A stretch of DNA of 64,000 nucleotides from Psococerastis gibbosa (Eukaryota; Arthropoda; Insecta; Psocodea; Psocidae), in the NCBI GenBank assembly GCA_963971405.1, contig OZ020485.1, positions 10,478,001-10,542,000 of the forward strand, read 5' to 3'. Shown piece by piece: positions 152-62,000 of the stretch. Positions within the stretch are counted from its first letter, which is position 1; each line of letters starts with the position of its first letter. Below the pieces are notes generated by a model. That model did no database searches, had not been told where the DNA came from, and was given only the letters and a program-made list of their open reading frames with translations. The position numbers were made by a program, and so were the translations under genes.

Positions 152-399
152 TGCGGCTATTCCACCGGCTTCATTTGTGATACTGTCACTAACGTTTGTT
201 TTGTTTTAAGGAGATGACTATTATGTAGATACTTAGGCTAACTTATCTATTATAAATTATATTATAATATGGTAGAGACTTATTAATGATTTATGCTACC
301 ATATTATAACTTAATTTATAATATAGTCTCCTTAAAACAAAACAAACGTCAGTGACTGTATCACAAATGAAGCAAATTGGCCGGTGGAATAGCCGCCTT
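152..399. mobile_element. Long hairpin (foldback) element, family H, long form
   Basis: Inverted repeat whose left arm starts GCGGCTATTCCACCGG and whose right arm ends CCGGTGGAATAGCCGC. The arms run through a shared T/A-rich block (GTTTGTTTTGTTTTAAGGAG and its complement) to an apex around 275-300 reading GGTAGAGAC..GCTACCAT. The closest relative is the 43251-43533 copy. No ORF. It shares terminal and apex sequence with the shorter hairpins at 34395, 42629, 42841 and 61494. Confidence 0.85.
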
Positions 400-11204: not shown

Positions 11205-11455
11205 AGATGAATATATTGTAGTATTATATGGTGTATATAACACTGACATTAAATTAACTTTGGTTAAAGAGGTAACCTCCTCGTTATAACCGAAATTAGA
11301 GGATATGGAAAAAACCGGGCTTGGCGGGATTCGAACCCACGATCTACGCCTAACCGGGACGTCGTCTTAATCGCTGGGCCACAAGCCCCGACAAGTTCAG
11401 TAAATGCCAAATCCTCTACTTATGCTCTAATTGACATGATTCGTGTTGCTAGACA
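11205..11455 (-). mobile_element. tRNA-derived SINE, family B, copy 1
   Basis: The minus-strand tRNA-like head at 11388-11317 has 7-bp complementary acceptor arms (GGGCTTG..CAAGCCC) and a T arm GTGGGTTCGAATCCCGC. The body continues CATATCCTCTAATTTCGG, GAGGAGGTTACCTC and a CAGTGTTATATACACCATA tail down to about 11205. Copies at 11538-11695, 18063-18320 and 56229-56400 share head and tail. Confidence 0.8.
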
Positions 11456-11537: not shown

Positions 11538-11695
11538 CAATATATTGTAGTATTATATGGTGTATATAACACTGACATTAAAATAACTTTGGTTAAAGAG
11601 GTAACCTCCTCGTTATAACCGAAATTAGAGGATATCGAAAAATGGGTTCGAATCCCGCCAAGCCCGGCTTTTTCCATATCCTCTAATTCGGATAT
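11538..11695. mobile_element. SINE family B, copy 2, inverted dimer remnant
   Basis: The first 100 bp directly repeat the tail of copy 1 (tail in the same orientation, 11205-11305). They are followed at about 11643 by GGGTTCGAATCCCGCCAAGC and CCATATCCTCTAATTCGG in the opposite orientation. The two half-elements meet head to head with most of the tRNA head deleted. Confidence 0.7.
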
Positions 11696-18062: not shown

Positions 18063-18320
18063 ACTAGGTCTATAAAGCCCGAAATTAGAGGATATGGAAA
18101 AAACTGGGCTTAGCGGGATTCGACCCCACGATCTACGCCTAACCGGGCGTCATCTTAACCGTTGGAACACAAGGGGCTTGTAGATCGTGGGTTCAAATCG
18201 CGCCAAGCCCAGTTTTTTTCATATCCTCTAATTTCGGTTGTAACGAGGAGGTTACCTCTTCAACCAAAGTTAATTTAAAGTCAGTGTTAAATATACCATA
18301 TAATACTACAATGTATTCTA
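18063..18320. mobile_element. SINE family B, copy 3, head-to-head inverted dimer
   Basis: The left half on the plus strand (CCGAAATTAGAGGATATGG, then a tRNA-like complement at 18102-18175) is followed at once by the right half in the other orientation (GTAGATCGTGGGTTCAAATC, then CATATCCTCTAATTTCGG and the family tail to about 18318). The two tRNA heads abut near 18176. Confidence 0.75.
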
Positions 18321-18324
18321 TAAA

Positions 18325-18425
18325 GCCCTCTCTTACACACATCTAAAAGACCCGCCTACTGTATACGTGTAATCGGAAGCATGGCCAGAAAATGTAGCAA
18401 ACAGCAGGTTGTAGCCTGAGGAGTG
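18325..18425 (-). repeat. SINE family A, partial copy 2
   Basis: The minus strand reads ATTTTCTGGCCATGCTTCCG, a GGCGGGTC block and GTGTAAGAGAGGGCTTTATA, the body and tail of the SINE at 1817. The tRNA head is missing. Confidence 0.65.
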
Positions 18426-28842: not shown

Positions 28843-31800
28843 ATGGACGTGGATGACGTGCTAGTACAAATAGGAGAGTGTGGCAGGTACCAAAAGCTTC
28901 TCCTCTGGTTCGTTCTTCTGCCGGCTGTCCTACCGTGCGCCTTTCACGCCTACGCCCAAGTCTTCATTTCCGCCAAGCCTGCGCATTGGTGCGGGGGGCC
29001 CCAGCTGGAAAGTGTTTCATTATCGGAAGAAACCGTTCGGAATCTAAGGTAAACACAGGTACCTAACATATTTAATGAGGAAGCCGTAGGATCACGGGCT
29101 GATGGGCCATGGTCAATTTGGAAGCGTACTTCCAAATGTCTCGTCAACATCTGCAGTCGACATATTCAGTGGCACTTCTAAGACAGACGAAGGCTTAGTA
29201 GCGACTGTGATGTCGACTGCTGATGTTGAAAAAACGTAAAGTAAGCTTTACCACGGCCCATCAGCCCAGATTCCATTGCTTCATTATCTAATATCATAAT
29301 CAACATCATCATAATCTAATTATTCATCCCCAGTCATTTGTTGTGAATAAAGCCTATTGATAGCCTTATGATGTCAATATTGTTTTTATATTTTGTATAT
29401 TTTTATTCTTTCCGCACTAGTAGGCTAACGTAATATGATATAAATAATATATATTTATATCAGGAGTAGCATTCGCTACATAGCTGTGATTTTACACTAG
29501 TAACAACTACACACAACTAAATAGGAATAAAACACACTAGATAATTTTCTTTTGTATTATTAGATATTTGGCGGTATATTGTGTTGGTAAAAAGTAACAC
29601 GGTTGCCAACATTGGGGTTTTCTAATGTTAATGTGACGGGCGTGAAGCCAATACTTTATTTTTTGTATTAATAAATAAATGGAACGTACAATTACGTAAA
29701 GGTGTTTTTTATAATAAAGATAGGATCCCATAATAGGTTATGGGCCCAGTGCGACGAATGTGACACTTGTGAAAAGCGTCTAAAATTAAAGAGAAAAGTG
29801 GTGAGTAAATCACAAAAGAAAAAAAAACACAAAATGGCCGACTCCGGCTTTTCAGTCAAATTAACAGGGAATAATTATGAGAAATGGAAATTCGTACTAA
29901 AATGTTTCTTGCAAGGAAAAGGCTTAGAAAGTGTAGCAAATGGAAAACTAAGTAAAAGCGATCAGGAATATTCTAAGAACGACGGAAAGGCCAAATACTT
30001 AATTGCCTCTTCGGTTGATGAAAAGTTGCTAACGATTATTGAAGGTTGCAAAACAAGCAAAGAAATGCTTGACAAGTTCGAGAAAATTTATGGTAGTACC
30101 TCAGAAGTCAATAAAATGCTGTTATACGAAGAACTACATAAACTTCACTTTGAAAGTGAAGAGACTATATCAGGTTTCATTGCAAGAGCGATGAATATTG
30201 CAGGAAAATTGAAAAATGCAGGAGAATCAGTAAGTGACAATCAAATTATAACAAAAATAATTGGAACATTGCCAGAAACATTTGTAAATTTCAGGCAAGC
30301 ATGGCTATCAACTGAAGATTCCAAACAGAACATTGAGAATCTAACGGCTAGACTAATAGATGAGGAAAGGATAATAAAAGGAGCTGAAAGTAAGACAGAA
30401 GCTTACATTGCCCATAAAAAACCTGAGAAAAGTCAGAAAAAGGACACCATCTGCTACCGTTGTTCCAAACGGGGCCATTACGCATATCAATGTGAAAGCG
30501 GGCGCGAACATCACGGACGTGGTACGGGTCGCGGACAAGCTTCAAATCGGGGTAACGAGTATCGCGGGCAAGGACATCGAGGACGCGGATATCAGGGACG
30601 CGGATATCAGGGACGCGGATATCGTAGAGGTAACTACGGCGGAAATTATAATGAACAAAGTACAAAGAAAAATGAAGTCAATAGTGATGCGTTTGTAATT
30701 GCAACCGAAAATAGTTATTACGAGTGGACTGCAGACTCAGGTGCAGGAAGACATATGTGTTATCAGAGAAGTTTCTTTAAAACGTTTGAAAAACGTAAAG
30801 GAAATGTCACCGTAGGAAACAGTGCGAAACTGAATATAGAAGGTGAAGGTGATATTGAGATAAGGAAGCTCGTAAATAATAAATGGGAAAATGGAATTTT
30901 AAAGAACGTCCTATTCGTTCCTGGGCTAAAAAGGAACTTAGTGTCTGAAGGAGAAATGACTGCAAAAGGCCTGGAAATCGTGAAGAAAGGGAAAACTATT
31001 GAAATCATGAAAAATAAAAAAGTAATAGCAAGTGGAACAAGAGATGATACAAATCTGTATCAGCTATTTTTTAAGACAGTAATAAATGATGTCGCATGCG
31101 CTAATGCTGAAGAAACTAAATCAAGTATGAAACTATGGCATGAAAGGCTTGGGCATATAAATATTGAGTATTTAAAGAGACATATGGCCCAAAACAATGT
31201 GAAAATGGAAAAAGAAGATTTCTTTTGTGAGCCATGTGTATTGGCAAAGCAAAGTAAAGCAAGTTTTAAGAAATCAGAAAGAATAAAACCTAAAGGTCCA
31301 GGACAGTTGATTTATACAGACATATGTGGACCAATGACATGTGAATCTGTTGGTAAAGCGAAATATATAATTCTGTTCAAGGATGGAGCTACAGCGTACA
31401 GAAAAGTTTACTTTGTGAGTAATAAAAGTTGTTTTATTGATTGTCTGAAGAAGTTTGACATGCTTTTAGTGAATAAATTTGGGCGTCATTTACAAGTGCT
31501 ACATTCAGACAATGGGACAGAAATCAGAAGTCAAATAGTTGACAGATATCTTGAAGAGATTGGCGCAGAAAGGGAATTAACAGCACCCTATACACCGGAA
31601 CAAAATGCACGCTGTGAACGCGAATTCCGGACAATAATGGAAGCTGCCAGAACCATGATGTTGGGCAAAAATATACGTAAAGAACTGTGGGCAGAAGCTG
31701 TGAATAATGCAGTTTACATTCTAAATCGTACGCCAAACTCGCAAGTAGACATGACTCCATATGAACACTGGACTGGGCAGAAAGCGAAACTAGATCATGT

Positions 31801-34800
31801 AAGAACATTCGGGTGTGATGCATACAAGATGAAACAAAAACATGAAAGAGACAAGTTAAACGCGAAATCTGAAAAACTAATTTTTGTTGGTTGCGACGAG
31901 AAAACGAATAATTACAGACTATATGATGAAAAATGTCGCAAAGTAGTGATTACAAGGAATGTTATATTCAATGAGAAAGGAAGTGAATATTCAAATGACA
32001 AAGAAAGCGATGAGAACGTGAATAATTATGTATTTGATCCAGGAATTGATGAGAACTCAGAAGATAATGATATTCAAGAATTACGTGAAGAAGATGAACT
32101 TCCAAAAAGAGGGACAAGGCAAAGAAGACAGCCAGCTTATTTGTCAAACTATGAGACATACTGTATGTTAAATGAATATGATCCTGTGTGTTATAGTGAA
32201 GCTATTCAAGATGATGATTGGAGGAAAGCAATCACTAAAGAACTGTCAGTGCATGAAAAAGCTAATACTTGGGAGAATGTGAACGAACTTCCAGCGGGCA
32301 AAAAGGCAATCGATACAAAGTGGGTGTTCAGAACGAAAGAAGGAGGTGAGAAGAAAGCTCGACTAGTAACTTTAAGTAAGTTTCTTGACAAGCCTACCTC
32401 GACCACATGGAAGGCGGGGAAAAGAATTCTAAGATATCTAAAAGGAACAAGAGAAATGGGCATCGTGTTTACGAAGAAAGAAAAAGAAGACGAAGAAGAA
32501 ATAGTGGGGTTCTCCGATGCAGACTGGGCGGGGAGCTCAGACCGAAAAAGCACTTCAGGCGGTGTGGTGTACTTTTACGGAAACGCTGTCTCCTGGGTTT
32601 CAAGGAAACAGCAATGTGTAGCCCTCTCAACGACAGAAGCTGAGTATGTTTCTGTGGCAGTGATGTGTTGTGAGTTACTTTTCATTTTTCAAGCGGCCAA
32701 TGATCTTGATAAAAATTTAAAAGCTTGCCTATATACAGATAATCAAGGAGCAATGAGTATTGCTGTTAATGCAGAAAACAGTAAAAGGAGCAAACACATT
32801 GATATAAAGTATCATTTTATTAAAGACTTAGCTAAGAAAGAAATAGTTAACTTTAAATACGTTTGTTCAGAAGACAATGTGGCAGATATTTTTACAAAGG
32901 CATTGGCCAAACCAAAGTTTGAGAAATTTTGCTTCATGTTAAACTTGGGATAATTTTTTTTTTACAATTTTCAACTTTTCATGATATGAAAACTTTTAAT
33001 TGAGAGGGGGTTTTGTATTATTAGATATTTGGCGGTATATTGTGTTGGTAAAAAGTAACACGGTTGCCAACATTGGGGTTTTCTAATGTTAATGTGACGG
33101 GCGTGAAGCCAATACTTTATTTTTTGTATTAATAAATAAATGGAACGTACAATTACGTAAAGGTGTTTTTTGTAATAAAGATAGGATCCCATAATATTTT
33201 CCTAATTGCAAACAATAATAATCAAACACCCCCATATTACACACTCGAATATTGTTCCAAAATTTGATCCAAGATATGGGCACAAGAAATATTCCAAATA
33301 TTTCTTCAATCGAATAAATATTGGGTCGAATAAATATTCGAGTGTGTAATCAGAATATATATATATATATACCCTACAGAATAAAAAAGTAAAATAAAAA
33401 GAGAAAAACACAGTTATACATTTTTGGTTATTTAACTTACAGTAGCCTATGTCAATATTTTACGATATATGAACAATAACTATTGCGTTTATTATGAGAT
33501 TCAGCTAAACCTGTCATAGAAAGACATCGGATTTATAGGTTGAAAACAAATTTTTTACCCGATCGTTTCATTTTGCCTCGAAATCGAAAAACTAGAGGAA
33601 AACTTAACTTCAATTTTTTTGCCTTTTCCGGTCTCCTCAATGTTGTTTTTATTCTCAAAGCCTGTTTTAGTTGCAACAGTTTGTGAACTGAAAAGCGCTG
33701 AGAACTCGTCGACCTAGTTTTAAAAACAGCAAAACTTGATCTGCTTCGGCTCAAATTTAAATAACACTTCCGCACTTTCCCAAAAGCAGCTTTTACAAAA
33801 TTTTTGTTTGAAGTTTAAGGTAGAGCCTTATTGCAATTTTAATTATCCACTTATGCATTCAAGAGAAAAATAAATCAACTGAATTGCCTGCTTTGTAGAT
33901 TTGAATCGATCCCCCGTTATTTAGAGTAAGCTCAACATGAAGTCTTACCGATTTTAGGCATCATTTGATTGGCAATGATTAGGTACCCAATAGACCCATA
34001 GGCCCACCGCCCACCGGCAGATTAGGCTGCAGCCCTTAGCATGGTATCAGAAGCTTCAGACGGGTCACAAACTACTTTATAGTAGTTAATAAATAGGAGA
34101 GAAAAAGGTTTAAAACCCGATGATTTTTGATTATTTCAAAAACTTCCCCCGAACACTTTAGTTCTCAAGCTCTGAAGATATGGTTCTTTTATCTTTTTTG
34201 AAGTATTGTTCGAGATGGAGATGATTACAAGGAATGCTACAGGTTCGACCGGAACTATTCACATGAAATTATCGAAGAAATTCAGTCAGTCCCGTCAATG
34301 ACCCCTTGCAAGGATGGATGGAAATATGATTCCAGCAAATATAAGTCAACTGTTGTCACGGAGGTACGGTACTTGAACACAATTGGTTATGCTAAGGGGG
34401 GTATTCCACATACGTACAACGTCAATGAAAATTATGAAATTGATGGTGGCAGCAGACATTTTTACATACTAAAAATTCTGCTGCCACCATCAATTTCATA
34501 ATTTTCATTGACGTTGTACGTATGTGGAATGGGGGCCTAAATAAATATACTTTATATAATGTATCCCCATACTGTAATATTTAGAAAAACAAAAACAAAA
34601 AACAAGTCGGTTTCGTCACTAACAGGCGGCGTAGAAAGTTTTAAGAACTGCGACATAAAAGTTTATAAATACCTGTGTAGCGGATAATGCCACCAATAAT
34701 GGTCAGATAAAGGGACTACTTCCCATCAAACTACACATAGGCTATGTGGACACATATGGGGTGCCTACCTATTCCTTAGAATCCCAGGAATTCACCAAGC

Positions 34801-37800
34801 ATCCAAACATACACATGTCCTGTTTTCTTTAATTAATTAATTAATGAGTTTGGCAGGATCTCTGCAATGGAAAGTACGCAATTTCTGAAGACTCTCCTAC
34901 TTGTTTGGTGAAACAATAGTGTTTCTGAGAAAAGGATATTTATTTTTAATTACTTTATAAACGCGGGAAAACTTATATTATTTTGCTCTATGTTGGTACG
35001 TTGACCTGTTGGGTCTTGTTACACTTGGCCCCGTAATGACGGAAAGGAGAAGTCGACATTCAGACGTTTTTCACGCAAAGTTCTTTTTTAATAATTTTAG
35101 TTATGTGGTCGCTGCATCCCTCCCCATTCCTTCCAACACCCACCCTACCGCACCGCTAATTAAATATATACAGTCCACTCAGAACCGTTCAACCGTACGT
35201 AAGTAAACCCGCCAACAATAGTTTCAATGCCAACCGCAAGATGGCGCAGCTGTTCCTTTAAACTCTGCGAATGTTCACTTGGGCCCCCTAGAAGAAAAAA
35301 AATAGTTTCCCAGGATATGGCATGTAATAAAATTGGCAATCTGACACTCTCCATTTATCGTTTTATTTACTACGGGCTTTATTAAAAATGTATTGTACCC
35401 CAGTTGTATACTAGAAGACTATTGCGAATAGCCTATCATATTGTAAGGCTTTTCTCATTTATCGTCTAGATATTTTAGTCCGTATTGCGTGCAATATTCG
35501 TCCCCAATAAGGGGTTGAAGTACTGCACCAAATCTTATAAATTCCATACTTGGGTAGATCTTGCGCAGTAATTCTAAATTGTTAGATGTATATAATCTAA
35601 ATTTTCGCAAATTTTCTCATAAAGAGTAGGTAGTATAAGAACAATTTTTTTGCCGCAGTGGGATCTGGTGTGTGAAAAAGGATTTTCCACAACCCTCGCC
35701 CTGGTACTTTACGCTGTAGGAGGCTTAATTGGAAATTATATATTCGGTTACGTCCAAGACATGTAAGTATTGAATAGCATATCGTCTCCAATACACTGGA
35801 AATTTTGCAAACTTCAAAGAGTCCAGAAACTCAAAATTACAACTGACAAACATAACACGTACCGTACCCCCCATAACACAAGTTACGATATTTATCTGAA
35901 AACGCACTGTCCCGCTAACCAACGCCCACCAACTACATATATACGGACCGACTGAACAGTACAGTATACAGAATATAAATGTAGCATGTATAGCACGAGG
36001 ACAGACTGGTAATTTACACAGTGGGCTAATACTAAATAATCCTAAATTATTACTAATAAGATATACTTTTACAAACTGTAAATCTGTACTGTAAGTAAAA
36101 TATTGTCAGCACACTAGGTATTCAATATTACGAGTAAACTGTATATAGCCTACATGCTAAACAAACAGCGAAAAACTGAAAATGCAACAAAAACCACTAC
36201 TACAACTAAAACTACTACCATTGTTTCCAGGCTATTCAAACTAACTGTAAACCTCTTCGTTGCTCGTGCTAGGCCTACTAAACCAATTTCGAAATCAGCA
36301 GAAATGTCAAAAATTTTCACAGGAAAAATAGCTGTATTTATTTAACGCAAAAAGCAAACGAAACATCCATCCAAAGTGTACATTTCAGCTTAAAAGCAAC
36401 AGAAACTTGAGCACAAGTCAAAGGTGTCAACGGGAAAGTAATAAGTCTGAAAGAAGAGAACAGAATACCGAGCACGATTTTCGAGTTTGAGAAATTCGTC
36501 TCTGCTGGCTGATCTACTTGAAAAGTCAACTATATTATCGAGTATATCGTACGTTTCAGGATGGGGAGGCGACCTGCTTTCTTTATATACCTAGGCATCG
36601 AATCCTTATTTACGGTGGCTTCCGCCTTCGCCACCGACTTCATGACCTGGATGATCCTCCGAATAGGCGTCGGATTTACTGTGCCAGCTATCCTCGGAAC
36701 GCCTATGGTGCTCTGTAAGTTATATATTTTCTAGCTCATGCCTACATAGTTTCTGGAATATAGTTTCCCTCTCTTTCCATTCGACCCCCTCGCCGCCCAA
36801 ATCTACGATATGTACAGCAGCTTTAGCTACTCTGACATAACGGTTAGAACAAAATATTTTCAAATGTTAAGTTTACAGATTCCAACTTGTTTATCATATG
36901 GCAAGGTAAGTTATATTGAGTAGGTATCAGTGTCTGGATATACTGTAATTTATATACAGTATGTATGTTTTAATATTTTACAATAACTCACGAAGAATCA
37001 ATCAGCTGCAATGGTGTGGCCACGTCCAAAGGAATAGGACCACCCGGAGGTTGGTGGAAGCAAGGCCATAAGGTAGAAGACCCATCCGCAGACTGAGGAC
37101 AACCATCGAGGAAAGGATTGAACAACTCGCCGGAGCAAGAGGAGAAACAACGGCCGATCTCATGACGCTATAGCGTCCGACCGGGTCGAGTACAAGAAAT
37201 GGGTCCGGGGCGACCCCTTCACGATGCGCACGCGGCACTAAGATGGAAGAGGAGGATGAAGAAGAACAATAATAATAAATGAAATAAATAATAAAAAAAT
37301 GAGCGTGACTACGGCACTGTACCTGGCGCAGCTAAGTTCCGCTCTTACATTGAGCTTATGTCTGATGCTTTCTTGCCATAATGCAGCAGCGTCGCCAGAT
37401 ACAGTGCCTTTGTCGCCTTCCTTTATTTATTTCATTTATTATTATCGTGAATTATTGTAACACATTAAAACATACAAGTATACTGCATATCTAAGGCTCT
37501 CTGGACACGATGCGTTTTTCCCAAGCGTTCAGGAAAAACGTTGCGTTTTAACGTGCATATACAAGCACCCAGTGAGAAAACTCACCGGTAAAACGCTTGG
37601 ACGCGCTATTTGGAATTCGAAATGAACCGATTTCTTGGAGCATGCGTTTTCTCGTCGGTTAGGCGGGCAACATGACAAACACAAAATCCCTGTCTATTTT
37701 GCTATTTTTGCTACTAAAAATGTCTGCTTCCACGATTTGTTTACTATCAAAAGAGACAAAATGGCGGAGCAACTACAACAAGATATTTTGTCTTAATTTT

Positions 37801-40800
37801 TTGATGCGTTTCAGTCATTTTCGTGCCTCAGGCACACGAAACATTCCAATTATTTTAACAAAATTAGGAAAAATTACTTCGCATTAACTGTAGCTCCTTA
37901 ATAAGTCTAACATGGGAGTAATCGTACTTACATTTAGTAAAAATCGTGATTTAACTTATTGCCTATCATGTCGTTGCTCTTCTTCGAGCTTCATCTGTAG
38001 AATTAGGAGTATTGCAGCAAATATAGTCTTTTTCCTTCTTCCTTTTGGTCTAGGCATGTTAAAAAATTAGTTTTGCATTTTATTTTTAAGCAAAAATAAC
38101 AATAAACAAAAATGGCGGACTAACGATTTAACCTCGGGAAAAACGCATCGTGTATTGTACCCTTCACTGCGTTAAAACTGTGCGTTTTGACCTTGGTAAA
38201 ACGCACCTAGAACGCTTGGGGAAAACGCATCGTGTCCAGAGAGACTAAGGCCCACCACGTTTCCCGCAGTCGGGATTAGCCGGCGTCTTATCCAATGTAG
38301 TCATAGGGCAGAAGATTTCTCGTCTACTTGTGAAGCTGGCGTGAAGCCAATCGCACGGCACGAAAGTGCACGCTTTCCTCCAGACGAAATCTTCTGAAGT
38401 AGATTCTCTGGGTTTACACAAACCATTCGCCCAATTCCAAAGAAGTTGCGACCCCGAGAATACATTTGTACCAGGCGTTAAACGTAACAATCTAATTAAT
38501 TTAATGCTTTCAGCTTTGGAATTAGTGGGACCAGAGAAAAGAACAATGGCTTTCGTTTTGGTCAATATAGCATTTTCGCTGGGATTGGTCCTTCTGTCGG
38601 GGGTCGTGTGGTGGATTCGCTCGTGGAGACAACTCACCCTAGCAACATGTCTTCCATTTTTAATATTCTTCAGTTACTGGTGGTAGGCTGACTAGTTGCT
38701 TTCCAATTTATACGTAGTATAAGGAAAGCTTTGTGATGGTCCAAATTTTCGATTCCGAGATTTCAATGAATTTACACGTTTTCTGGTCCCAGGAACCCAA
38801 AAAAGTGGTTTTTACGAAATGTCTGTCGGTCTGTCTGTCTGCCTTTTGCATGTAGGTTCACAAAAATCATGCCTCGAGAACATTTTTTTTATTTTGGGCT
38901 AACTCAATTTGGGGGGTTTTTATTCTCAAAAAACTCAAAAAAAACGTCTAAAAAAATTATTTCTCAAAAACGGCTCCAACGATTTCTTTTAAATTCACAT
39001 AATATATTGTAGTCGTTATTAATGTTAACAAAATGCGGGGGTCGCTTGCTCCTTGATTGTTTGCTTCTGGGGGTAAAAAAAAAAAAAAACTAAATTTTCA
39101 TGAAAAATGATAAAAAAATAATTTTTCTGCGAAACCTTTCAATCGATTATTTCTACCTTCAGGGATGTTTTAGGTATTAAATTGAGTAACGAAACCGGAT
39201 AGGTTGCTTTCCCAAAAAAATATTTGGTTTTGCACAAAAAATTATTTATAATTAATGTGTTTGTCTGGCCTATCTAGAATTTATCTCACTTTCAGTGACG
39301 TCAGGTGGAAACCCCCCCCCCCCCCCCCGAGATATCGGAAATTTAACCACAGGAAAATTATTTACCATGAAATTACTCATTCTCTCTATCTACTAATGTT
39401 GATAAATTGGAAAGCATGTTCGAGTAAACTCGGACCGGTTCTTTTTAATTGCTTTCCTATATTTTATACGTTAGTATGAGGAAAGCTTATATATTATGAT
39501 GGTCTACATTTTCGATTTCGAGATTTCAAGGGATTTACCTACAGGAGCCAATTAAAGTGGATTTTAAGAAATGTCTGTCTGTACCTCGATTTGGGGACAA
39601 ACAGAAAACTACAATATAATTGATAGAATTTGATATGTACGATAAGTTCACAAAAATATTGTCCCGATTTTATTTTTCATTTTTTGTATAACTTCGTTTT
39701 GGGAGGTCTTACACAAAAAGAACTACTAAAATATTTTTTCTCAAATCCGGTTCCGACGACTTCTTTTAAATTCATACACTCGTACAATATATTGTAGCAG
39801 GAAGTTATTAATTTAAACAAAACACAGTAGCCTACGGTACGTTGCATTCCCCTTGATAGTTTAGTTCATACCCGATACCCTAAAAGTACAGCTTTCTTTT
39901 ATTACATGATAGGGTAATGCCAGAATCCCCCCGATGGCTATTATCCAGAGGAAAGTACATGGAGGCGGAAAAAATATTGAGGACCATGGCTATGGTGAAT
40001 GGCAAGCAACTCCCTGACAACTGCATGTATCGACTGAGGAAAAAAATGGAAATGAACAACAAGGAGACGCAAGATGAATCTGCGAGAACTTATGGCATAT
40101 TTGATCTCTTTCGGCACAAAAATCTAAGAAGAAATACAATCATTGTGACATTTATCTGGTGAGTTGAGGATACCGTATGAAATGATACAATGTCCACATA
40201 CACAACTTGATGATATAGAGATATACCATAAATACATACTGTATATACTTGTACTTTAAATAGGTTAGCCTAAAAAAGTCATATTGCATTTCAAAAAAAT
40301 ATAATCATTAATAAATTCAGGGGTGTAAACCAATAACAGTAGGCAGTTTCCACGGATCCACGGGTCATGACCCCCCCCCCCCTAAATGAGTAAATTAGGT
40401 TTTTTTTTAGATTGAATAAAATTGAAATTTTCAAAAAAAAACTGTTTAACTTACATACAACTTGTGACACCCCCCCCCCCTAATTTTTCCACTCACTGGA
40501 TCCGCTCTCGGTTTACCGGGGATGCAGGTAGCCTACGTCAACCCCAACATTATGGTGGTCAATGTTTGAATTGCATACATCGACATTATTCATCTCCCCT
40601 AAGAGATTAGGAAGGCTGCTTAGGCTGAATGTCAGTAGACGCCTCAAGTGGCCACAGCCAAAGTATAACATGGGGGTTCAACCATCTTCTGAAATGAGTC
40701 TGAAGAGACCGCGGAACACTATGACAGGTTGGACAGTCTTCGTTAACCAGGCCGACCTGATTGATGACTGTTTAATGGATAATTTCGCCCATATGGAAAA

Positions 40801-43800
40801 TAAAAACACAATTCAAGTGGCCGTAGCCAAACTAAAACTGGGGGGTCCAACCATCTTCTGAAATGAGTCTGAAGAGACAGCGGAACACTATGACAGGTTG
40901 GACAGTCTTCGTTAACCAGGCCGACCTGATTGATGACTGTTTAAATGGTAATTTCGCCCATATGGAAAATAAAAACACAATTTTCTTTCTTTCCCTCTTT
41001 CTTACTATGACTAAGAAATTTTAATAAATATTTATTTTATTTTCTTAACAGGTTCACCAACACAGCCGTCTATGTAGGTCTGTCTTATTATGCACCCGCC
41101 CTTGGAGGAGACGAGTTTCTCAACTTCTTCTTAGCAGCGGTGGTAGAGTTACCGACCTACTTCGTTCTGTGGCCAGCTTTGGAGCATGTAGGACGTCGCT
41201 GGGTATTGGCCACGTCAATGGCCATAGGCGGAACTGCCTGTTTGGCCACTGTTTTCGCTCATAAAAGTAAGCATAAAAAGGGCGGGGTTTAGATAACTCA
41301 GCGGTAGGCTATTGTTTTATAACAGAGACCAAGGCTGTAGCCTTTTTTTCAGGGGGGTCCCTCGGTCATAGGATGTGAAGTAACCTCAATATATTTAAAG
41401 GCACATTGTATCTAGTGTACACTGCAAATATTTCGGGAGGGGTCCGGACCCCCTGAACCCCCCTCTGGCTACAGCCTTGACAGAGACAAAGGTAGCCTAT
41501 ATGACCAGAAGACTTCTTCAAATAATTATTGCATTCGCGTGCAATCTCAATTCTCAGTACGTTTCCCCGCGGCGCAGTAGCTCATACAGCTGACAGTGAA
41601 CCCATGCAAAAAAGAGCAGTGCAAACCTATGCATAGGTGGGCTATTATGAAATAAATACGGCAAATAACAATTATTAATTCTATTGCTGAACCAACCAAC
41701 TTGGAAGGGATATGCCCTATGAATCATGGACGGAAAAATTCAAAAATAACAAGTGTACGACTCGAAATCCTAGGTACCTGAACAACCTTTTGGGTGAAAC
41801 ACTATCTACACAATTATTTGATCTGGCTAATTAATCCAATCAGAAACTACCAATAATAAAAATGTGCTTTTACATTGCAGGTCACAGTTTAATGCTCGGC
41901 CTATATTGCATAGGGAAGATGGGTATTTCGTGTAGTTTCGTGGCAGTGCCGCTGGTTGCATCCGAACTGTACCCCACGGTGGTGCGAGGGCTCGGCATGA
42001 GCACCAGTTCAGTGGTGGCACAAATTGGCCCCATCCTAGCTCCCTTACTCAATTACTTGGTATGTGGCAAAGTGCAGAGGTGTAACAATAAGGCTAATAA
42101 CACGGGGAAAAAATATACAAATAATATAGGCCAAATAAATAACATGAGTTACATTATTATGCATGTCCCAGTGATTGTGATTAAGGGCATTTTCCGCCAT
42201 CGCTTGAAAGGTAGCGGTAATACTGCTGTAAGGCGCAACCATGCATTTGTATTACAGTCCAGTATTCCTTTCGGATGCTTTTCAGGCGATGGTGGGACCC
42301 AAGGTGTAGTCCTTCGGTTAAAAGTTTAAAATATTCAGGTATTTTATAAACGTTTCTTATTACCGGTCTTGTTTTAATAGTTTTCTTTGACGCTATCATC
42401 TCTATAGACATGATAGCAGGACCAATATGTCACTATAAGGAGGTCAAGGTACCTACTGTACATAAAATTCTCTTCAAATAACAATAATAATAACTATAAT
42501 AAGAGAAATGATTGGATTGCCGGTAAATCAGTGGATCTGTCACTTCTTTTTGAAGTACGGTACCAAACATTGGGGAACATCGTTGCATAGTTCAATATTT
42601 GTAGGGGTTTTGTAGAGCGAACATCATAGGCGGTTATTCCATCGACGTCAATAGTGATAGCAATGCTGATATTGACGTGGTAGCAGACATTTTTAGACTG
42701 TCTGTAATGTCTGCTACCACGTCAATTACTACCATTACTATCACTATTGACGTCGATGGAAAAACCGCCATACGGAACGGTACCTACCTTCTCGGCTACT
42801 TCTGAAAAGCGTTGTATGCCAATGTTGTAATAGCTGTGTAAGGCGGGGTTTCCACATACGTCAATGGTCAATGAGAAATATGAAATTGACGTTTTAGCAG
42901 ACATTAAAGACATACTAAAAATGTCTGCTACCACGTCAATTTCATATTTCTCATTGACCATTGACGTATGTGGAAACCCCGTTTTAATACAATATCCTCT
43001 GTATTTCGACATGACTACAGGCTAATTATTTATCTAATTGCAAAACACCAACCAACTAAATAGTTGCATTAATACAGTAGGTAGCGTAACATAAACTTAC
43101 TTATGAATGGGGCTACTCTTTCAACTTAGAATTGAAACAAAAATTTATTAAAAAACTTCAAGGGATGCGAGAAGAACAAAAGGTTTAATATTGAATTTTG
43201 TAATCGGTGACTGATGTTCTGGAACTTGTAATATGTGCTTGCACTTAATAGGCGGCTATTCAACCGGCCAATTTGCTTCACTTGTGAAGCTGAGAATTTT
43301 GTCATTGACGTTTTTTTTTGTTTTTTTTTTTAAAGGAGACTATTATGTAGATACTTAACTTACCTATTATAAATTAAGTTATAATATGGTAGCAGACATC
43401 ATTAATAATAATATAACTTAAATAAGTTAAGTACGGTATTTACATAATAGTCTCCTTAAAACAAAACAAACGTCATTGACAAAATTCTCAGCTTCACAGC
43501 AAGTGAAGGAAATTGGCCGGTGGAATAGCCGCCTAAGAAGTAGGTATAACAACCAGTGGCGGATACAGAGGGGGGGGGGGTCAGGGGGGTCATGACCCCC
43601 CTCCCCTTAACACCCCGAGGGGGCGGCAAAATGACGATGAAAAATATTTCATTTATTAACATTTAAATTAAAAAAACATATTCAATATATTTATAAGTAT
43701 AATATGCCGGATTTACCGCATGGGCAACATGCAGATTTTAGGGGCGGCAAATTTGTGGAAAATTTTGAGCATTTCGGAAGCGGCGCTGGTGAGTGGTGAG

Positions 43801-50000: not shown

Positions 50001-53000
50001 CTACCAATGGCTCTTCCACCTCTCTTCTTCATTTCTCATCCCTTCATTTCCCATCCTATCACTTCTTGTGCTGTTTAATAATTTCACCAACGACATAAGA
50101 ACTGCACCATCATAGCGAAATAAGATTTTTTTTTCCAACTCACTCATATTGGCACGAAATATATCGGCGATAAGAGCCAGATCATCGTAGGACGCGACGA
50201 CAAAATAGGTAGGGTCAAGACGATTCAATTCTTGAATGGCCTTCAACGAGCGCCGCTGCTTTTCAACCCGCCCCCCGGACAACTCCACCATTTCGCACAA
50301 GGCTCTTCTCGAGGGGAAAACCCCTGGCGTCAGGTAAAATATTTTGTCCTGCAAACAAAGTAAGCAACTCATTGTGAATAAAACAACTTTGTACAGTTTG
50401 ACGTCATCGGCGTTATTAGGGGAGTGGGGGGGGGGGGGGGCTTAGCCTCAGGTATTATGTTTGACGTAAACCTGCACAAAGTTACAAAGTTAATAAGGAG
50501 GCTGTTAACAAGATCTTCCAGTAGGTAGTGATAAATGACTAATTTAGTTACAATCATTACAACGCCTTCAGTGAGATGTAATTAAATGTTCCAAGTCATA
50601 CTTCATTTATCAGTAAGTGAAAAAATTCGACATACCTTAAAAAGAGCGTTCCGATCAGGACTTAATATGACCTTGGCGATATTGCATTTGAAATCGTCGT
50701 CATCGATGTTGTTAATAATGTAAGGGCCTTCAGCTGAAATACCAAAGATATTCATTTGATATATAATTGGGTCACAACGTTAACGAAACGTGTTGTCTCA
50801 ACAGACCGTATTTTTTAGTACAATTTTTAATGATCCCCTGTACGTATATAGCCCAGGGTAGATAATTTTTTTTTAAATTATAGTGGAATGCAACCCATTG
50901 GAAATAGAAGATAATATGACAGACAAAGGAAAAATAAATTACGGGCGATCTGAGTTCGGGAGTAGGTTTTTAAGGGTGAAATACGGTACATCTTCATTTC
51001 TGGCCAAAGTGCAAGTCCTATGGAAAAACGTCAAATAGTAAAAAGGTAGGTAATAAGAAGATGTACAACAAATTTTATGAGAAAAATGCCAAAAACCAAG
51101 GTTTCGGTTTTTTATTTTTAACATTTACAAAAAAACGTTTTTTTACGTGAAATTCGGTGAAAACTTACCTTTCTATGTTTTAAATACGCAGTATTTTTAT
51201 TTTATTTAAAATATTAATTTTTTCTACCAATTTTTGACTATACATGGAAAAAGCACCCTAATTTCAATCTCACGTCAAAATATCTTTTTTTTTTAAATTA
51301 GGTGGGCTTTTTGTTTATTGAAATCTCTACTTTCCGATGGTATAAAAAACAGTATGCACTACTGTAAAAAATTTTCTTAAAAAAGAAATCGAAAAATGAT
51401 GTCGTTAATATTTAAATATATAGTCCGGTCAATTTAGTTTAGTAGGCCCCATATTTATATCTCTGTCAATCAGCTCTAAAATAAAAATAGTAATCTTTGC
51501 GTTCTTAAATAGTATGGCTAACGTTACATAACCGAAAAAAAAAATCGAATGATATTAGTATAATATTAGATGAGAGTTATTGTAATTTTGGATGACTAAA
51601 TTGGCCGGACTATATTTTAAATATTAACGACATCATTTTTCGATTTCGTTCTTTGCATTTTTTAAGAAAATTTTTGACAGTAGTGCATATTGTTTTTATA
51701 CCATCGGAAAGTAGAGATTTCAATAAATAAATATTTTTTAAAAAAATGACATTTTGACGTGAGATTTTTCGATTGAAAATTAGGGTATTTTTCCATATAT
51801 AGTCAAAATTAGGTAGAAAAAGTTAATATTTTAAATCAAAAAAATTACAGTGTATTTAACACATAGAAAGGTAAGTTTTCACCGAATTTCACGTAAAAAT
51901 GTCTTTTTTGTTTTGTAGAAGTTATAAATAAAAAACCAAAACCTTGGTTTTTGGCATTTATCTCATAAAATTTGAGGTTAAGTGAAAAAAGTGTTATCAC
52001 TGAAGTTGTACATCTTCCTATTACCTACCTTTTTACTATTTGACGTTTTTCCATAAGACTTGTAGTTTTGCCGGAAATGAAGATGTACCGTATTTCACCC
52101 TTAAAAACCCACACCTTCCTACTCCCGAACTCAGATCGCCCGTAATTTATTTTTCCTTTTATGTCTGTCATATTATCTTCCATTTCCAATGGGTTTCATT
52201 CTACTATAATTTAATGTTGTTTTTTTTACCATTTTTCCTGACTGATTTACTAATATTCTAGCATAAGATCAGACTTACACTTATCATGTTTTAGAGCAAT
52301 AACAGTTCCTATGTGAAAACATAAATTTACAAAGAAGCTGGTATTTTTAACGCATTTTTCATAAGACCATCTTCATATCTTAGCAGTTGTGGAAAGAAGA
52401 ATTAATGAATTTGCTCAATATGACGGGCCATAACGTTGAATCTCCTCCCCCTTCAGCCAGTCTAGGGAAGATTTAGGCCCTCGCTCACACTAATTTAGGA
52501 GGAATTTCGCCTGTCTCTCACCATTCAAGCACAGTAATTGAAACACAGGAAAAGACAATCAGCCAAATTCATAAAAGAAGTATAAGCTTATACTTCACAT
52601 AATTGGAGCATATGCTTGTGTTTCTATTTTTAAGAATTTTGAGAAAGCGCATTTGCTTCAGGAGAATAAGGCCGCACTGCATTCCTTGCTCCACGAGCGT
52701 CTCGAGCTTTTTCTTATTTTATGGTGGCAAATGCTAACAAGTAAACTTATTGGATACGGCAAGATGGTAGTAAGTAGTGTTGTAATTGTGTGAGTCTCTA
52801 CAAACCTTGCGATCGGAGACAATTCGTAACTCAACACAAGTAATAAGTTACATTCATTAATTGTTTGTATGTGATTAAACTTTATTTTAAAATATTTAAA
52901 GGAATAGATTAAATAAATATGAAAGAAACGGTATGTTCATCCCTTTACTCTTCTATTAATGAATTCGGATTTAATAAATGTACGAGTATAAATGTACTTA

Positions 53001-56000: not shown

Positions 56001-59000
56001 TAGCTGGAGAAAAGTAGTTCCTGTACAGACCGCCAGCAGCTTTAATCATCAAAACGACTCGATCACGCTCACTTCGCTCTTCGAACCCAGTCAGACTCAT
56101 ATGGTACTTTGATAAAGGTTTCTCCCGGCTACAAGAAATAAGTGAGTTAATTAGACTTTTGCACGATCTATTGACGTTCAAAAACCAATAAATTTCCACA
56201 AATTTGTTTTCTATATTAATATTATTATTAAAATTAGAGGATATAGAAAAACTGGGCTTGGCGGGATTCGAACCCACGACCTACGCCTAACCGGGGCGTC
56301 GTCTTAACCACTGTACCACAAACCCCGACAAGAACAGTTGACATACAGTATATCCTCTACTTATATGCTTTTGTTGACATGAGGTTAGCACAGCAAAATT
56401 AGATTTTTGGAGCCATCCACTACGTGGCCTATGACCAGCCATTGAATATACGTAGCAGGTGGCCTCAGGATTAAAAAAAATATTTTTGGCGCGCTCGAAT
56501 GGCCCATCTCTCCCATACGTATAGGACGTATAGAACTCTAATGCTTACCTAAAAGGGAGAGGGAAATGCAGTGCCAACCACGGGACGCTGATGGAGCCCT
56601 TGGCGACGACATCGCTGAGCCAATATGCAGTGACGCAGCGCTTACCATCGCGCAACCCCTGCTGCACAATCCCGTGCTTCTGCGTTTCACACAGTACATG
56701 AGTTACTCTGGAAATTAACAAAAAGTCAACATTTTTGTACAATGGACCACTTTCCTACAGAATAATTCAACATGACGGGCCTCTGCCTCGGTGTGATTCG
56801 CGCAGCGCATCCCCATACTTATCTTATAGAGCTTTGGTATATGATGCAACGCCCTGACTGGTGGGGAGTAATTGCTAATTGACATGTACCCCATCACTCT
56901 TCTCACGGATATGAAGTTAATTAGAGTCTTTCCTTCGTTTGTTCTTTGGAGCACCTCTCCGTTTGTTATATGGTTTCCCCATGATAATTTTAGCATTCTT
57001 CTATAAAACCACATTTCAAAGGCTTCCAACTTTTTCCTATCTTTTTCGTAGATGTCTCTTAGCCATAAAGCAGTATGTTCCAAACAAATGTTTTCCTTAT
57101 ACTGTCGATGTTATTAGACTCGAGCAATTTCGACTTTTCGTTAAAGGCTATTAGGACTAGGGGGAATACGGAAAACAAAAGCTCGAGTTTTGTCATTTAA
57201 GAGCTTACAGTAGGGAGAATCATTCAGCTCTAGGCAGCACAGAAATCACCCCCCTCCCTCTCCCCGCAGGATAATGGTTAATTAATTAAAATATTAGAAC
57301 TTACCTATGAGTGTAGTTACTCTCAACTTCGCCACCATGATCCCGAATAATCTCTTCCCACGCGGAAATATTGACCTCGGAGGACTCCGATTTGTCATAC
57401 TCCACGATGTAGAATACACATCCGATCAGGTACTTGTCCTGCGGTACTAAAATAAGAAACCGCAATATTGTATTTGACTTATGGCGAGAACCTCCACCTT
57501 ACGCTTGGTCACAACTGCGGGATCGTTGATTTTCCAAGCTGTGGATGCCCTGCTTGCTATCCTGGTAGAATCTGGCGTGAGTACGAGCAATCTGTCAATT
57601 ATGCCAACGAAAGCTATAAGTAGGTACTCACTTTTGATATTCGGATTATGGGTGAAGAATTGAGGTTTCGGCGGGACAGGAACGGGCGGAGCAGGAGCCG
57701 GGCTTTTGGGGCCCACATTGGTGATGTTGCCAAGAGTTCTTCGGGGCTGCAGTTGGACGCTGGGGCCGGGGCTGAAGACCACGCCCTCGGAGGCGGGGCC
57801 CGGCACCGCCCTCTGCTGTGCTGACATGAGCCGCAGTTGTCCGGCCGCGCTGTCCGCAACTCCCATCACCTAAATCATGAAATTGTTGTTATTGAGAGAA
57901 CAAGAAAGCACTAACCGCATGCATCCAAAATATCTTAACAGAATTAAATCTATATGGTACTTTTAAAAAATTAAATTAGTTAGCAGAGAGATGACTCTCG
58001 TACCGGCAACTGGTTAGGCACCAAGCACAACCACAACCTAGGGTAGCTACAGAGCCACAAGTTTCAAAATATTTTCGCCCAATGCATTTTGATTACCTCT
58101 TAAAGACCGAGAAGGCGAACATTTCGCATAGAAGGAAAGGCATATTATAACACATAATAGCCATATTGTATGTAACAAATCAGGGTGGCGCTACTCAGCT
58201 ACTGTGTGAATAATCATTTTAGGAATTTTAGCTGCCGGAAATAGTACGGAATCATAGAAATATTCATTAGAAAATTATGAAACTCTATACGACAAAAATA
58301 ATAAACCAATTTCAGTAATTAATTTACCACAGCCTACTACATTTATAATAAAGGGGTAGCGGGCCGTTGACAGCGACCACCTCAGGATCACTCCCAAAAT
58401 AGGTGGGTTCATATTTTTTATTTAATTTAATGGTTAAGTAATAACGATTTTGTGTGCTCAATTAGCAGAGGACTATTACATACATAGTACTACCAGGAAT
58501 GTTTTAGTTTGTGAAACTGATAGGCGACAGAAATTTACCGAATTATCAAATTCGTCGGTGGTAGGTAGGTGGCAAACATCAACGTTAAGAGTGTACAGCC
58601 CGTAGGAAAGTGGCAGCCCAAAATTTAATACTTTTTATTTTTTATTTAATTAACTAAGCATGCTATTAAAGATTTGGCTCATCAAAGTTGTAGAAGACTA
58701 CTTCATGCATCATATATTAAGGTATTTTTAGTTTTCGAAATTGTAGTTTTTTTATAAAATAGATAATACGTGAAAAGTTATTGTTTATAAAATATTTGCA
58801 TGTTTATGAAAAACCTAAAATTTCGAAAATTAAAAATATCTTATAATATGATGCATGAAGTCTTCTACAACTTTAATGAGCCAAATCTTTAATAACATGC
58901 TTAGTTAATTAAATAAAAAATAAAAAGTATTACATTTCGGGCTACCAATTTCCTACGGGCTGTACACTCTTAAAGCTTCCTCTTATATGTTTTTTTGTGT

Positions 59001-62000
59001 TTTTTATCCCTAATCATAAAACACATACAGTTTGTAAAATTATTATCAACACTCCAACGCAGTGAAAACCATGCAATAGTACAATACTACTTAACATAAT
59101 AACTAAGAACGGGGGTGTTAAATATTACGGTATGGTTACTTAACATGAAGATGTTCATGCTTCATCGCTACAGCATCTCTTTGAATTTTAATTATCCGGA
59201 GTAAATTTATGGTGCTTTGGAGTAGGACAAATCAAGACGGTAGAAAATAACCCCCGGACAATATTAGATGACTGTAGCAATGCTTATAGACTACTGCCAG
59301 CCAGTCAATGGTGGAGGCATGGTGGTACATGGTGGTAAGAACATCTAACAAATACCACCCACTCAATTAGTTGATAACAACCATAAACATATTTTCTTAT
59401 TATTTTATTATATTTTTATTAATCATCACTACAATTACTGAATAGTAAGGTTTAGCAAAGCAAAAATGCACAAACGCAAAGAAAACATAGGGACAAAACA
59501 TAATTACGAATATAACAATAAGAAAATTTTTAGCTCGATTTTTCCGATTGTTACCCAATCTTTTCCAAAGTGTTGTTGTGAAAAAATCATTACCATTAAG
59601 TCCCAACATAGCACTGCAATGTTCCAATGCATGAGAGACTTCCCCCTCATAAGACGAACCATTCTCTCTTGACTAAATTTAATAGTAAAATGTTTCTATA
59701 AGAATCAAAATAAAGATTTTTTGTATATTTAGGTAGTATGTACGTGTATTTAAGGTGCAAACATGGTTTTCCTGGTTTTAGTGCTCACCCTTAATTACAC
59801 CTACATACGGTATGTAGAAAAAAACAGCAGTTTCCAGCGTTAAGACATGCTCAGCGATAAATCAGCACAGGCTACAGCGGTTGAAATGAGCTAAACAGGC
59901 ACAATAATGCATTTAATAGTATTCTAAATAATGCAGGAGAGCAGTGACGTGTGTAAAATAATACCCCGCCAATACATGTACGTATTATGAGCAAATCCAA
60001 GTACCCCCACGGCCCACAACGCATTTTTTATAATCAATTTTCAAATGAAATATCGATTGTAGAGCCGTCAAAAATAACTGTTAAATTAGCAGAAATGCTC
60101 CTCTGCATTTCGATACATCACATGTGGCCTTCACTAACACTAATGAACTCCTTCCTCGGGACTACCACACCAATCTTTTTTTTTTTTTTTTAAGTCAATA
60201 ATTAGAAATAGTTAGAAATTGGTTCATGTAATGTATCATAATTCTCAGAAATGTTTTTGCAGTTTTTCTTGATATTTTTGGCAGCTCTAAGATTGATGTG
60301 GCATGTGATATCTGATGTTTACACTAATAAGGCTTTTCCCACTGCGATTGTTTCTTAACAATAGACTACCTCAATGAAAGCTCTACAGTAGAGCGTTAAG
60401 TTTTAGTTAGATGGCGGGGGCAAAACTAAGTAGACCTTATGACGTCATCACGCTTTCCGTAAGGATATTTTTCATGCATAGGCTTCCCCTAGCACGGAAT
60501 CACAGATTCACAAATGTTTAGATTGTATAGAAATAATTTTGCAATTTCTCAAAAAGGGGAGCTCAGGGGTCTCCCCCGGGGAAAAAAAATGAAAATATAA
60601 GTGCAAAATAGTAGGGTTTTACGCATTTTAATAGTAGTAAAGTATAGCTGTAGATTTTACAAATAAGCTAATAAAGGAATGCTTACATTCATATAGCTGC
60701 AAACAGCGGGCCCGGGGGTCTTCATGAACCACGTCCTACAATGCTCAAGGCGGGGGGGGGGGGGGGGGCAAAGCCCCCCCCCAAAAGGAGCTGGCGGGGG
60801 CAAGATAGACCGTGCCCCCGCCAACTTTACGCCCCAGGCTCTACTATCGATATCTCCTGCGAAATTTGAAATTGTACACCTGTAAGGTTTTTCCCCTACG
60901 GTTGTGCTTTATATAGTATAAAAATGGGTTAGCGGGCAGTCTTTTTCACACGTCGGGTCTCTTCTACACAGAACTCTAAGTTAGCTAAGCACAATGATTG
61001 CATTCATGCCATTCCTGATAGGTGTTACCTGCTGCTGCTGCTGCTGGGGCTGCGGAGAGATGTGGCCCGTGTGCAGACGGCTGCTGAGCATGTTGGCCAG
61101 CGCGGTCTTCGTCCGGTTGTTGACGACAATCCCGCCACCGCCCTACACCCAAAACACACGCCCACCACCGGGGTCAGACCCAGACACTCATATAAACACA
61201 GCCCTGCCTCGCTACAATCACTCTGGCACTATAACTCAGGTTTCAGGCGTTCAGACCAATTTCATCGCTTTATTACGTAACACTGCATTAAAGCTTGCAA
61301 ATAGATCGGCTTCTAAGCTTGCCTCGACAAGGACAACCTATCTGCCTTTCCACACCTCGTTTAGGTACTGAGTAAGTGATTATGCTGGTTACTAGGCTTC
61401 ATAGGGATACATTGATCCACATCACAACATGGTCATACAGGTCCAATGTTTTGTCAACAATGGTGTTGAGCGATATGCTGACCACAAATCCTGAGGCGCA
61501 TATTCCACCGACCTCGATAGTGATACTGATATTGACGTGGTAGCAGACATTAAAGACAGTCTAAAAATGTCTGCTACCACGTCAATATCAGTATCACTAT
61601 CACTATCGAGGTCGGTGGAATTTGCGCCTTACAAATGGGAAGCTTCGACTGAATTTTCGGGCACTATTATTGTTTCCCATTATTATATTCGCCGCTAGCA
61701 AACTGGACGTAATTTCGATGGCAGCCTACACCAGTCGCAAACGACAATGGACAAGCTGAGACTTGAATAGGGTGGCCAGATATACTCTTCTCAAGAGTAT
61801 TTATACTCTTTTGTGTTCCAAGTTCGACATACTCTTTCTTTTTGTGCTTTTGATGTAAATATACTCTCTTTTTAAATCAGATCCCACTATATATAAAGAG
61901 CTATGCTAGAGGAAGTGCACTCTTCAGCTAAATACAAGTACCTTAGGTCGGAAAAAAATACACAAGGTAGAATGCAATATAAATAATTTTATAATTCAAG

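What the first reader, a model, noticed from the sequence alone, without database searches (positions are those of the whole stretch)
34395..43533. Hairpin family H: conserved ends and conserved apex, but different stems
Six elements (152-399, 34395-34538, 42629-42769, 42841-42985, 43251-43533, 61494-61629) share an outer AGGCGGnTATTCCAC and an apex near GGTAGCAGACATT..AATGTCTGCTACC. Between these, the paired stem sequences differ between copies yet stay complementary within each copy. Ordinary MITE copies would be alignable along their length. This pattern suggests that one arm is rewritten from the other, by snap-back DNA synthesis, gene conversion between arms or hairpin-template replication. 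I know of no described family with this behaviour, but cannot search.
Basis: partly seen in the sequence, partly recalled or inferred. Interest (0 to 1): 0.8.

Follow-up and report, generated by a model that had tools for sequence, protein, structure and literature searches.

The report
Hairpin transposons with matched arms
These are small hairpin-shaped jumping-DNA copies in a eukaryotic genome whose two arms have changed together, probably because one arm was copied onto the other by an already described kind of DNA-copying error; the family looks new but the behaviour is of a known kind.

Summary
All six hairpins are real palindromic, MITE-like elements in a eukaryotic window. Four short copies (E2 34396-34537, E3 42629-42769, E4 42842-42983, E6 61495-61628) form one family in two sister pairs, sharing the spacer; two long copies (E1 152-397, E5 43251-43533) form a related type. 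So the stems are alignable, against the finding.

The true left-right pairing of arms is the best of 105 possible pairings. Over six copy pairs, 75 sites show both arms changed together and none shows an arm difference shared between copies (shuffle mean 19.8, maximum 42). In the long type the effect is weak: 14 columns against 4.

Flanking 3-mers (TTA, TAA, ATA) are duplicated perfectly at three of six, suggesting a PIF/Harbinger-type (Tourist-like) MITE; no transposase was seen in the nine ORFs scanned.

Best reading: arms are made equal in the mobile lineage by template switching, then decay after insertion. The same pattern is in print for Galileo repeats, and the process for other inverted repeats. 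With six copies and no genome held, rewriting of resident copies is not excluded.

The parts
152..397 (.). E1, long-type palindromic element, 246 bp; flanked by TTA on both sides; apex decayed
34396..34537 (.). E2, short-type palindromic element, 142 bp; flanked by TAA on both sides; arms 34395-34460 and 34473-34537
42629..42769 (.). E3, short-type palindromic element, 141 bp; flanked by ATA on both sides; arms 42628-42691 and 42706-42770
42692..42705 (-). E3 spacer between the arms, 14 bp, inverted relative to E4 and E6 (13 of 14 to E6, 11 of 14 to E4)
42842..42983 (.). E4, short-type palindromic element, 142 bp; flanks TAA / TTA (2 of 3); arms 42841-42905 and 42920-42984
42906..42919 (+). 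E4 spacer, 14 bp, 12 of 14 identical to that of E6
43251..43533 (.). E5, long-type palindromic element, 283 bp; flanks ATA / TAA (1 of 3); both arms carry a 12-bp stretch that both arms of E1 lack
61495..61628 (.). E6, short-type palindromic element, 134 bp; flanks TGA / TTA (2 of 3); arms 61494-61551 and 61566-61629
61552..61565 (+). E6 spacer, 14 bp

Best explanation
The six are two related types of short non-autonomous DNA transposon, palindromic almost throughout, probably moved by a PIF/Harbinger-type transposase encoded elsewhere. In the short type the arms are only 8-14 bp apart, so a strand can fold back on itself. During replication or repair of the mobile copies, synthesis switches from its own template to the other arm (template switching, quasi-palindrome correction) and returns, copying one arm's changes onto the other and leaving the spacer. 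A change in one arm of a mobile lineage is thus soon erased or made symmetric, and subfamilies come to differ by symmetric changes. After insertion a copy mostly decays, gaining private arm mismatches. Shown: the hairpins, the homology of the copies, the symmetric changes, no shared asymmetry in the short family, 3-bp duplications at three of six. Inferred: the transposase type, template switching as the copying step, and its timing before insertion.
For: True left-right pairing is the best of 105 pairings of the 8 short arms; it is also the best of 10,395 for all 12 arms, but that number is inflated because long and short arms are trivially unlike. Over the 6 short copy pairs: 75 concerted sites, 0 left-left/right-right, 0 crossed, 56 with one deviating arm, 19 other. 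Dealing right-arm letters anew among copies gives mean 19.8, maximum 42 concerted and mean 22.6 shared-asymmetry cells in 2000 shuffles; simulated independent arms give mean 4.0, maximum 21 concerted in 2000. The tree of the 8 arms unites both arms of each of the 4 copies, support 95/93, 61/61, 81/80, 93/92. 16 of 39 variable columns are symmetric in all four copies; private symmetric columns number 8, 3, 4, 5 in E2, E3, E4, E6, and 4 columns mark E2+E4 against E3+E6. In the long type a 12-bp stretch is in both arms of E5 and neither of E1. The spacer is shared, so copies were not rebuilt from one half each time (E2 read directly). E3 and E4 lie 70 bp apart yet belong to different sister pairs, so equalising stays within a hairpin. 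Flanks: 14 of 18 positions match, 3 of 6 perfect. Mechanism in print: PMC8604942, PMC8794818.
Against: Only six copies; no genome held, no further copies found. No transposase among the nine ORFs given to Pfam. ATA in E3 is not TWA, E5 lacks a duplication, E4 and E6 are imperfect. Some single comparisons go the other way: without gaps E3L is closer to E6L (91.4%) than to E3R (90.6%), and E1R closer to E5L (93.7%) than to E1L (92.3%); with gaps E1L-E1R is 66.7% against 69.6% for E1L-E5L and 73.5% for E1R-E5R. Long type: 4 crossed columns (2 adjacent substitutions, 2 gap columns) against 14 concerted. E3 has weak tree support. Symmetric changes can be inherited from several source copies. No switch event is seen directly.
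Confidence: 0.55

Rival explanations
1. Plain MITE subfamilies: a few source palindromes, each made symmetric by a rare founding event, each gave rise to its own copies; no ongoing arm copying.
For: Copies fall into alignable sister pairs; 4 symmetric columns are shared by subfamily; six copies cannot show how often equalising happens.
Against: Each of the four short copies has its own private symmetric columns (8, 3, 4, 5), so at least one equalising event is needed on each of the four lineages; no shared asymmetry is left from any source.
Confidence: 0.2
2. Rewriting in place: resident, immobile copies keep copying one arm from the other, so stems drift while staying matched.
For: Private symmetric changes in every short copy; arms matched over nearly the whole stem; template switching acts on ordinary inverted repeats (PMC8604942, PMC8794818).
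Against: Private mismatches remain in each copy, also near the apex. In E3 one private symmetric column (38) lies between mismatches at 34 and 39-44, which a later correction tract should have removed; this is one column only. The tRNA-type palindrome 18079-18237 shows 5 split and 0 concerted sites, but it is a single palindrome compared with relatives that are not palindromes.
Confidence: 0.15
3. Selection for the hairpin: a matched stem is needed for movement or for making small RNAs, and separate compensating mutations are kept.
For: All six fold into long hairpins.
Against: A 12-bp stretch present in both arms of E5 and neither of E1 is hard to get by two independent mutations; no shared half-way asymmetric state is seen in the short family.
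Confidence: 0.07

Closest known systems
Galileo (P superfamily, Foldback-like) in Drosophila
   Same: TIRs nearly identical within a copy and divergent between copies: >99% identical within, about 7% divergent between GalileoN-1 and -2 (PMC2775673, passages). [quoted passage not shown]
   Different: 7- or 8-bp duplications and TIRs of hundreds of bp with a middle segment; here 134-283 bp, palindromic almost to the loop, 3-bp flanking repeats. GalileoN-4 and -5 show the reverse pattern, explained in that paper by ectopic recombination.
Tetris foldback element of Drosophila virilis
   Same: Repeats grouped together within two of three complete elements, taken as a possible sign of homogenisation (PMC4079207, passages).
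   Different: The repeats there are tandem repeats of about 220 bp inside the TIRs; the elements here have no such repeats.
PIF/Harbinger group and Tourist-like MITEs such as mPing
   Same: 3-bp duplication TTA/TAA, first TIR base usually A or G (PMC4482050 and PMC2836001, passages); here A or G at 11 of 12 ends.
   Different: No transposase partner found; one duplication is ATA, one absent, two imperfect; the elements are palindromic almost throughout.
Template-switch homogenisation of inverted repeats (quasi-palindrome correction)
   Same: Arms made equal, spacer kept or inverted (PMC8604942, abstract and passages; PMC8794818, abstract and outline).
   Different: Shown there for yeast coding sequence and RNA genes; here it would act on a family of mobile palindromes.
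CMITE elements of corals
   Same: Internal region better conserved between families than the TIRs (PMC2872659, abstract and one section).
   Different: piggyBac-like TIR motif; arm-against-copy comparison was not in what I read.

Membership tests
MITE (non-autonomous TIR transposon) | short, several copies, terminal inverted repeats | tested here: met
   134-283 bp, six copies in 64 kb, inverted repeats nearly throughout
MITE (non-autonomous TIR transposon) | target-site duplication of constant length | tested here: inconclusive
   3 bp: perfect at 3 of 6, 2 of 3 bases at two, 1 of 3 at one, 14 of 18 in all; length and boundary chosen after looking
PIF/Harbinger group | TWA (TTA/TAA) 3-bp duplication | tested here: inconclusive
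   TTA in E1, TAA in E2, ATA in E3, imperfect in E4 and E6, none in E5 (definition PMC4482050)
PIF/Harbinger group | first TIR base usually A or G | tested here: met
   11 of 12 ends (10 G, 1 A; E1 left is T), ends as printed
PIF/Harbinger group | autonomous relative with DDE transposase and Myb/SANT ORF1 protein | not testable with these tools
   no genome held; none in nine window ORFs scanned with Pfam
Galileo | 7-8-bp target duplication | tested here: not met
   7-bp flanks match at 13 of 42, 8-bp at 15 of 48 positions
Galileo | P-superfamily transposase | not tested
   no autonomous relative available
Template-switch homogenised inverted repeats | arms more alike within a copy than between, no inherited asymmetry | tested here: met
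   short family 75 against 0 sites; long type only partly, 14 against 4 columns
Template-switch homogenised inverted repeats | before-and-after pair showing a tract copied from the other arm | not testable with these tools
   needs orthologous sites in relatives

The most novel reading that the evidence does not exclude
Resident copies of this family rewrite one arm from the other at a rate near or above the point-mutation rate, so that a selfish hairpin stays foldable while its stem sequence drifts freely: a transposon whose conserved trait is its fold, with only parts of the ends, the apex and the spacer held in sequence.
Probability: 0.15. Interest if true: 0.6.

Novelty: new member of a known kind. 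Interest (0 to 1): 0.3.

Why it matters
A family of mobile palindromes gives many independent records of arm-to-arm copying. If whole-genome copies confirm that no arm asymmetry outlives its copy, one could measure how often hairpins are corrected in an animal germ line and whether this happens before or after insertion. As it stands it is a clear local example of behaviour already in print for other repeats.

Tried and rejected
TA (mariner-type) duplication: considered by eye first; 2-bp flanks match at 4 of 12 positions while 3-bp flanks match at 14 of 18.

Nested hairpins inside single arms: 10 of the 12 arms folded (8 short, the 2 long left arms, that of E5 without its last two bases); z-scores from +1.55 to -2.49, weak and not general. 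Dropped.

More copies: exact-pattern scans of viral contigs and genome contigs found none. One terminal pattern hit 5 viral contigs; none of the 5 has the apex core within 400 bases or an exact 10-base piece of the partner arm within 500, so I take them as unrelated. Profile models of the arms found no further arm in the window at E below 0.01.

Rebuilding of each copy from one half: set aside because the spacer is shared. One search prints 2 of 12 for E2 against E4 because I set the E2 boundary two bases off; read directly they share ACATACTAAAAAT.

Polarity of correction from the apex: the outer 9 columns are less matched, but that part also varies between copies, and the inside shows no gradient (5 of 98 against 10 of 126 cells).

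Literature: eight paper searches ran; two listings were cut (20 of 29, 10 of 11). In the titles and abstract beginnings shown I saw none on arm homogenisation in palindromic MITEs; eight papers were opened, by abstract, passages or single sections, none in whole. A hairpin model of MITE amplification in fish (Angel elements, 1999) is recalled from memory; one search shows only that words of its title occur in other papers.
Full report
What is there. The window is eukaryotic: it holds a copia-type frame, LINE-type reverse transcriptase and RNase H frames and a weak MFS match; no whole genome is held for it. That the host is an arthropod is a guess from recall. Six hairpins lie at the stated places: E1 152-397, E2 34396-34537, E3 42629-42769, E4 42842-42983, E5 43251-43533, E6 61495-61628.

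Alignability. BLAST within the window aligns E2 with E4 (79.9%, 139 columns), E3 with E6 (80.0%, 135; 82.4%, 142 in the other orientation), E3 with E4 (75.9%, 141, other orientation) and E1 with E5 (75.1%, 229). E4 and E6 share 64 columns at 90.6%. E2 against E3 and E6 is found over 30 columns only and joins through E4. The spacers of E3, E4 and E6 match at 11 to 13 of 14 bases in the right orientation, E3 being inverted. As the elements are palindromes, an inverted spacer may only mean insertion in the other direction. E2 shares 13 bases of spacer and arm start with E4 by direct reading.

Arms against copies. Global alignments of the 12 arms give arm identities without gaps of 89.2, 90.6, 93.8 and 98.3% in E2, E3, E4 and E6, against means of 77.4 to 85.4% between short copies; with gaps 87.9 to 93.8% against 65.9 to 80.6%. 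Single values against the pattern: E3L is closer to E6L (91.4%) than to E3R (90.6%) without gaps, though not with gaps (82.8 against 89.2%). In the long type the arms are 92.3 and 92.1% alike (66.7 and 76.0% with gaps), while E1 against E5 averages 90.8% (68.3%), and E1R is closer to E5L (93.7%) than to E1L. The true pairing is the best of 105 in the short type. It is also the best of 10,395 for all six, but most of those pair long with short arms and say little.

Site patterns. In a joint alignment of the eight short arms, over six copy pairs, 75 sites have equal arms within each copy and differ between copies; none is left-left/right-right or crossed; 56 have one deviating arm and 19 are of other kinds. 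Pairs reuse copies, so these are not independent. Counted once, 39 columns vary: 16 are symmetric in all four copies and 23 have an asymmetry in one or two copies. Shuffling right-arm letters among copies gives mean 19.8 and maximum 42 concerted cells in 2000 shuffles, and mean 22.6 shared-asymmetry cells where 0 are seen; simulated independent arms give mean 4.0, maximum 21. The ML tree unites the two arms of each copy with support 95/93 (E2), 61/61 (E3), 81/80 (E4) and 93/92 (E6). In the long type 14 columns are concerted, most of them a 12-bp stretch (9 adjacent gap columns plus neighbours in the alignment) that both arms of E5 have and both of E1 lack; 4 are crossed, 72 have one deviating arm and 11 are other. 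There the equalising was incomplete.

A limited control. The palindrome 18079-18237 is made of a tRNA-bearing repeat with relatives at 11290 and 56231. Its arms are 91.4% alike and 90.7 to 94.8% like those two relatives, with 5 split and 0 concerted sites (a third, shorter relative, 84-86%, was aligned but left out of this count). It is one palindrome against relatives that are not palindromes, so it only shows that a palindrome in this genome can decay without the pattern.

Timing. No asymmetry is shared between short copies, so older ones are gone. In E3 one private symmetric column (38) lies between private mismatches at columns 34 and 39-44; a later correction tract would have removed these. 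One column is slight evidence that correction came before decay. E3 and E4 lie 70 bp apart and belong to different sister pairs, so equalising works within a hairpin, not between neighbours. Six copies cannot exclude slower correction in place.

Ends. With the element starting at the G after the A, the flanking three bases agree in E1 (TTA), E2 (TAA) and E3 (ATA), at two of three in E4 and E6, and at one in E5: 14 of 18. Random window triplets reach 14 in 0 of 100,000 trials and three perfect in 0.011%; A+T-rich triplets in 0.019 and 0.084%. Length and boundary were chosen after looking, so these are generous. TTA and TAA are what PIF/Harbinger elements duplicate (PMC4482050, PMC2836001; passages). 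I file the elements as MITEs; the superfamily is likely, not shown. The outer nine columns are where arms disagree most (11 of 36 against 15 of 224 cells), contrary to 'conserved ends'.

Known or new. The identity pattern is in print for Galileo (PMC2775673, passages), with insertions in one TIR that may pass to the other (PMC4168063). Arm homogenisation and spacer inversion by template switching are described (PMC8604942), as is hairpin upkeep by the same process (PMC8794818, abstract). Eight searches of an open-access library listed nothing that, by title or abstract beginning, reports it for palindromic MITEs. The family looks new in that no copy was found in the collections scanned, which hold almost no animal DNA; Repbase-like libraries could not be searched. 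The kind of element and of process are known.

Verdict. Observation partly confirmed, interpretation partly supported: known in kind, but a clear and countable example.

Noticed in passing
11290-11439, 56231-56382, 18079-18237: tRNA-Thr hits (11316-11388 and 56253-56325) lie inside repeats whose outer ends read AGAGGATAT...ATATCCTCT or a decayed form; at 18079-18237 the start of the same repeat forms a head-to-head palindrome. Possibly a tRNA-bearing mobile element.
   Followed up: partly
11210-11313 and 11539-11642: Direct repeat of 104 bp at 98% identity beside the tRNA-bearing repeat; a related stretch (91%) lies at 18215-18326 on the other strand.
   Followed up: no
50873-52214: Palindrome of about 1.34 kb, arms 78% alike; no second copy in the window at the BLAST cut-off used.
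   Followed up: partly
58585-58973: Palindrome of 389 bp, arms 86% alike; no second copy in the window at the BLAST cut-off used.
   Followed up: partly
42628-43534: Three of the six hairpins, of both types, stand within 907 bp: perhaps a favoured target.
   Followed up: no
37712-37736: Stretch of about 21-25 bp, 91-96% identical to the apex and spacer of the short family, without a second arm; a fragment or chance (BLAST E down to 5e-5; not found by the profile model).
   Followed up: partly
29675-32953: Copia-type frame of 1092 codons with gag and integrase-region Pfam matches; no reverse transcriptase family was reported in it.
   Followed up: partly
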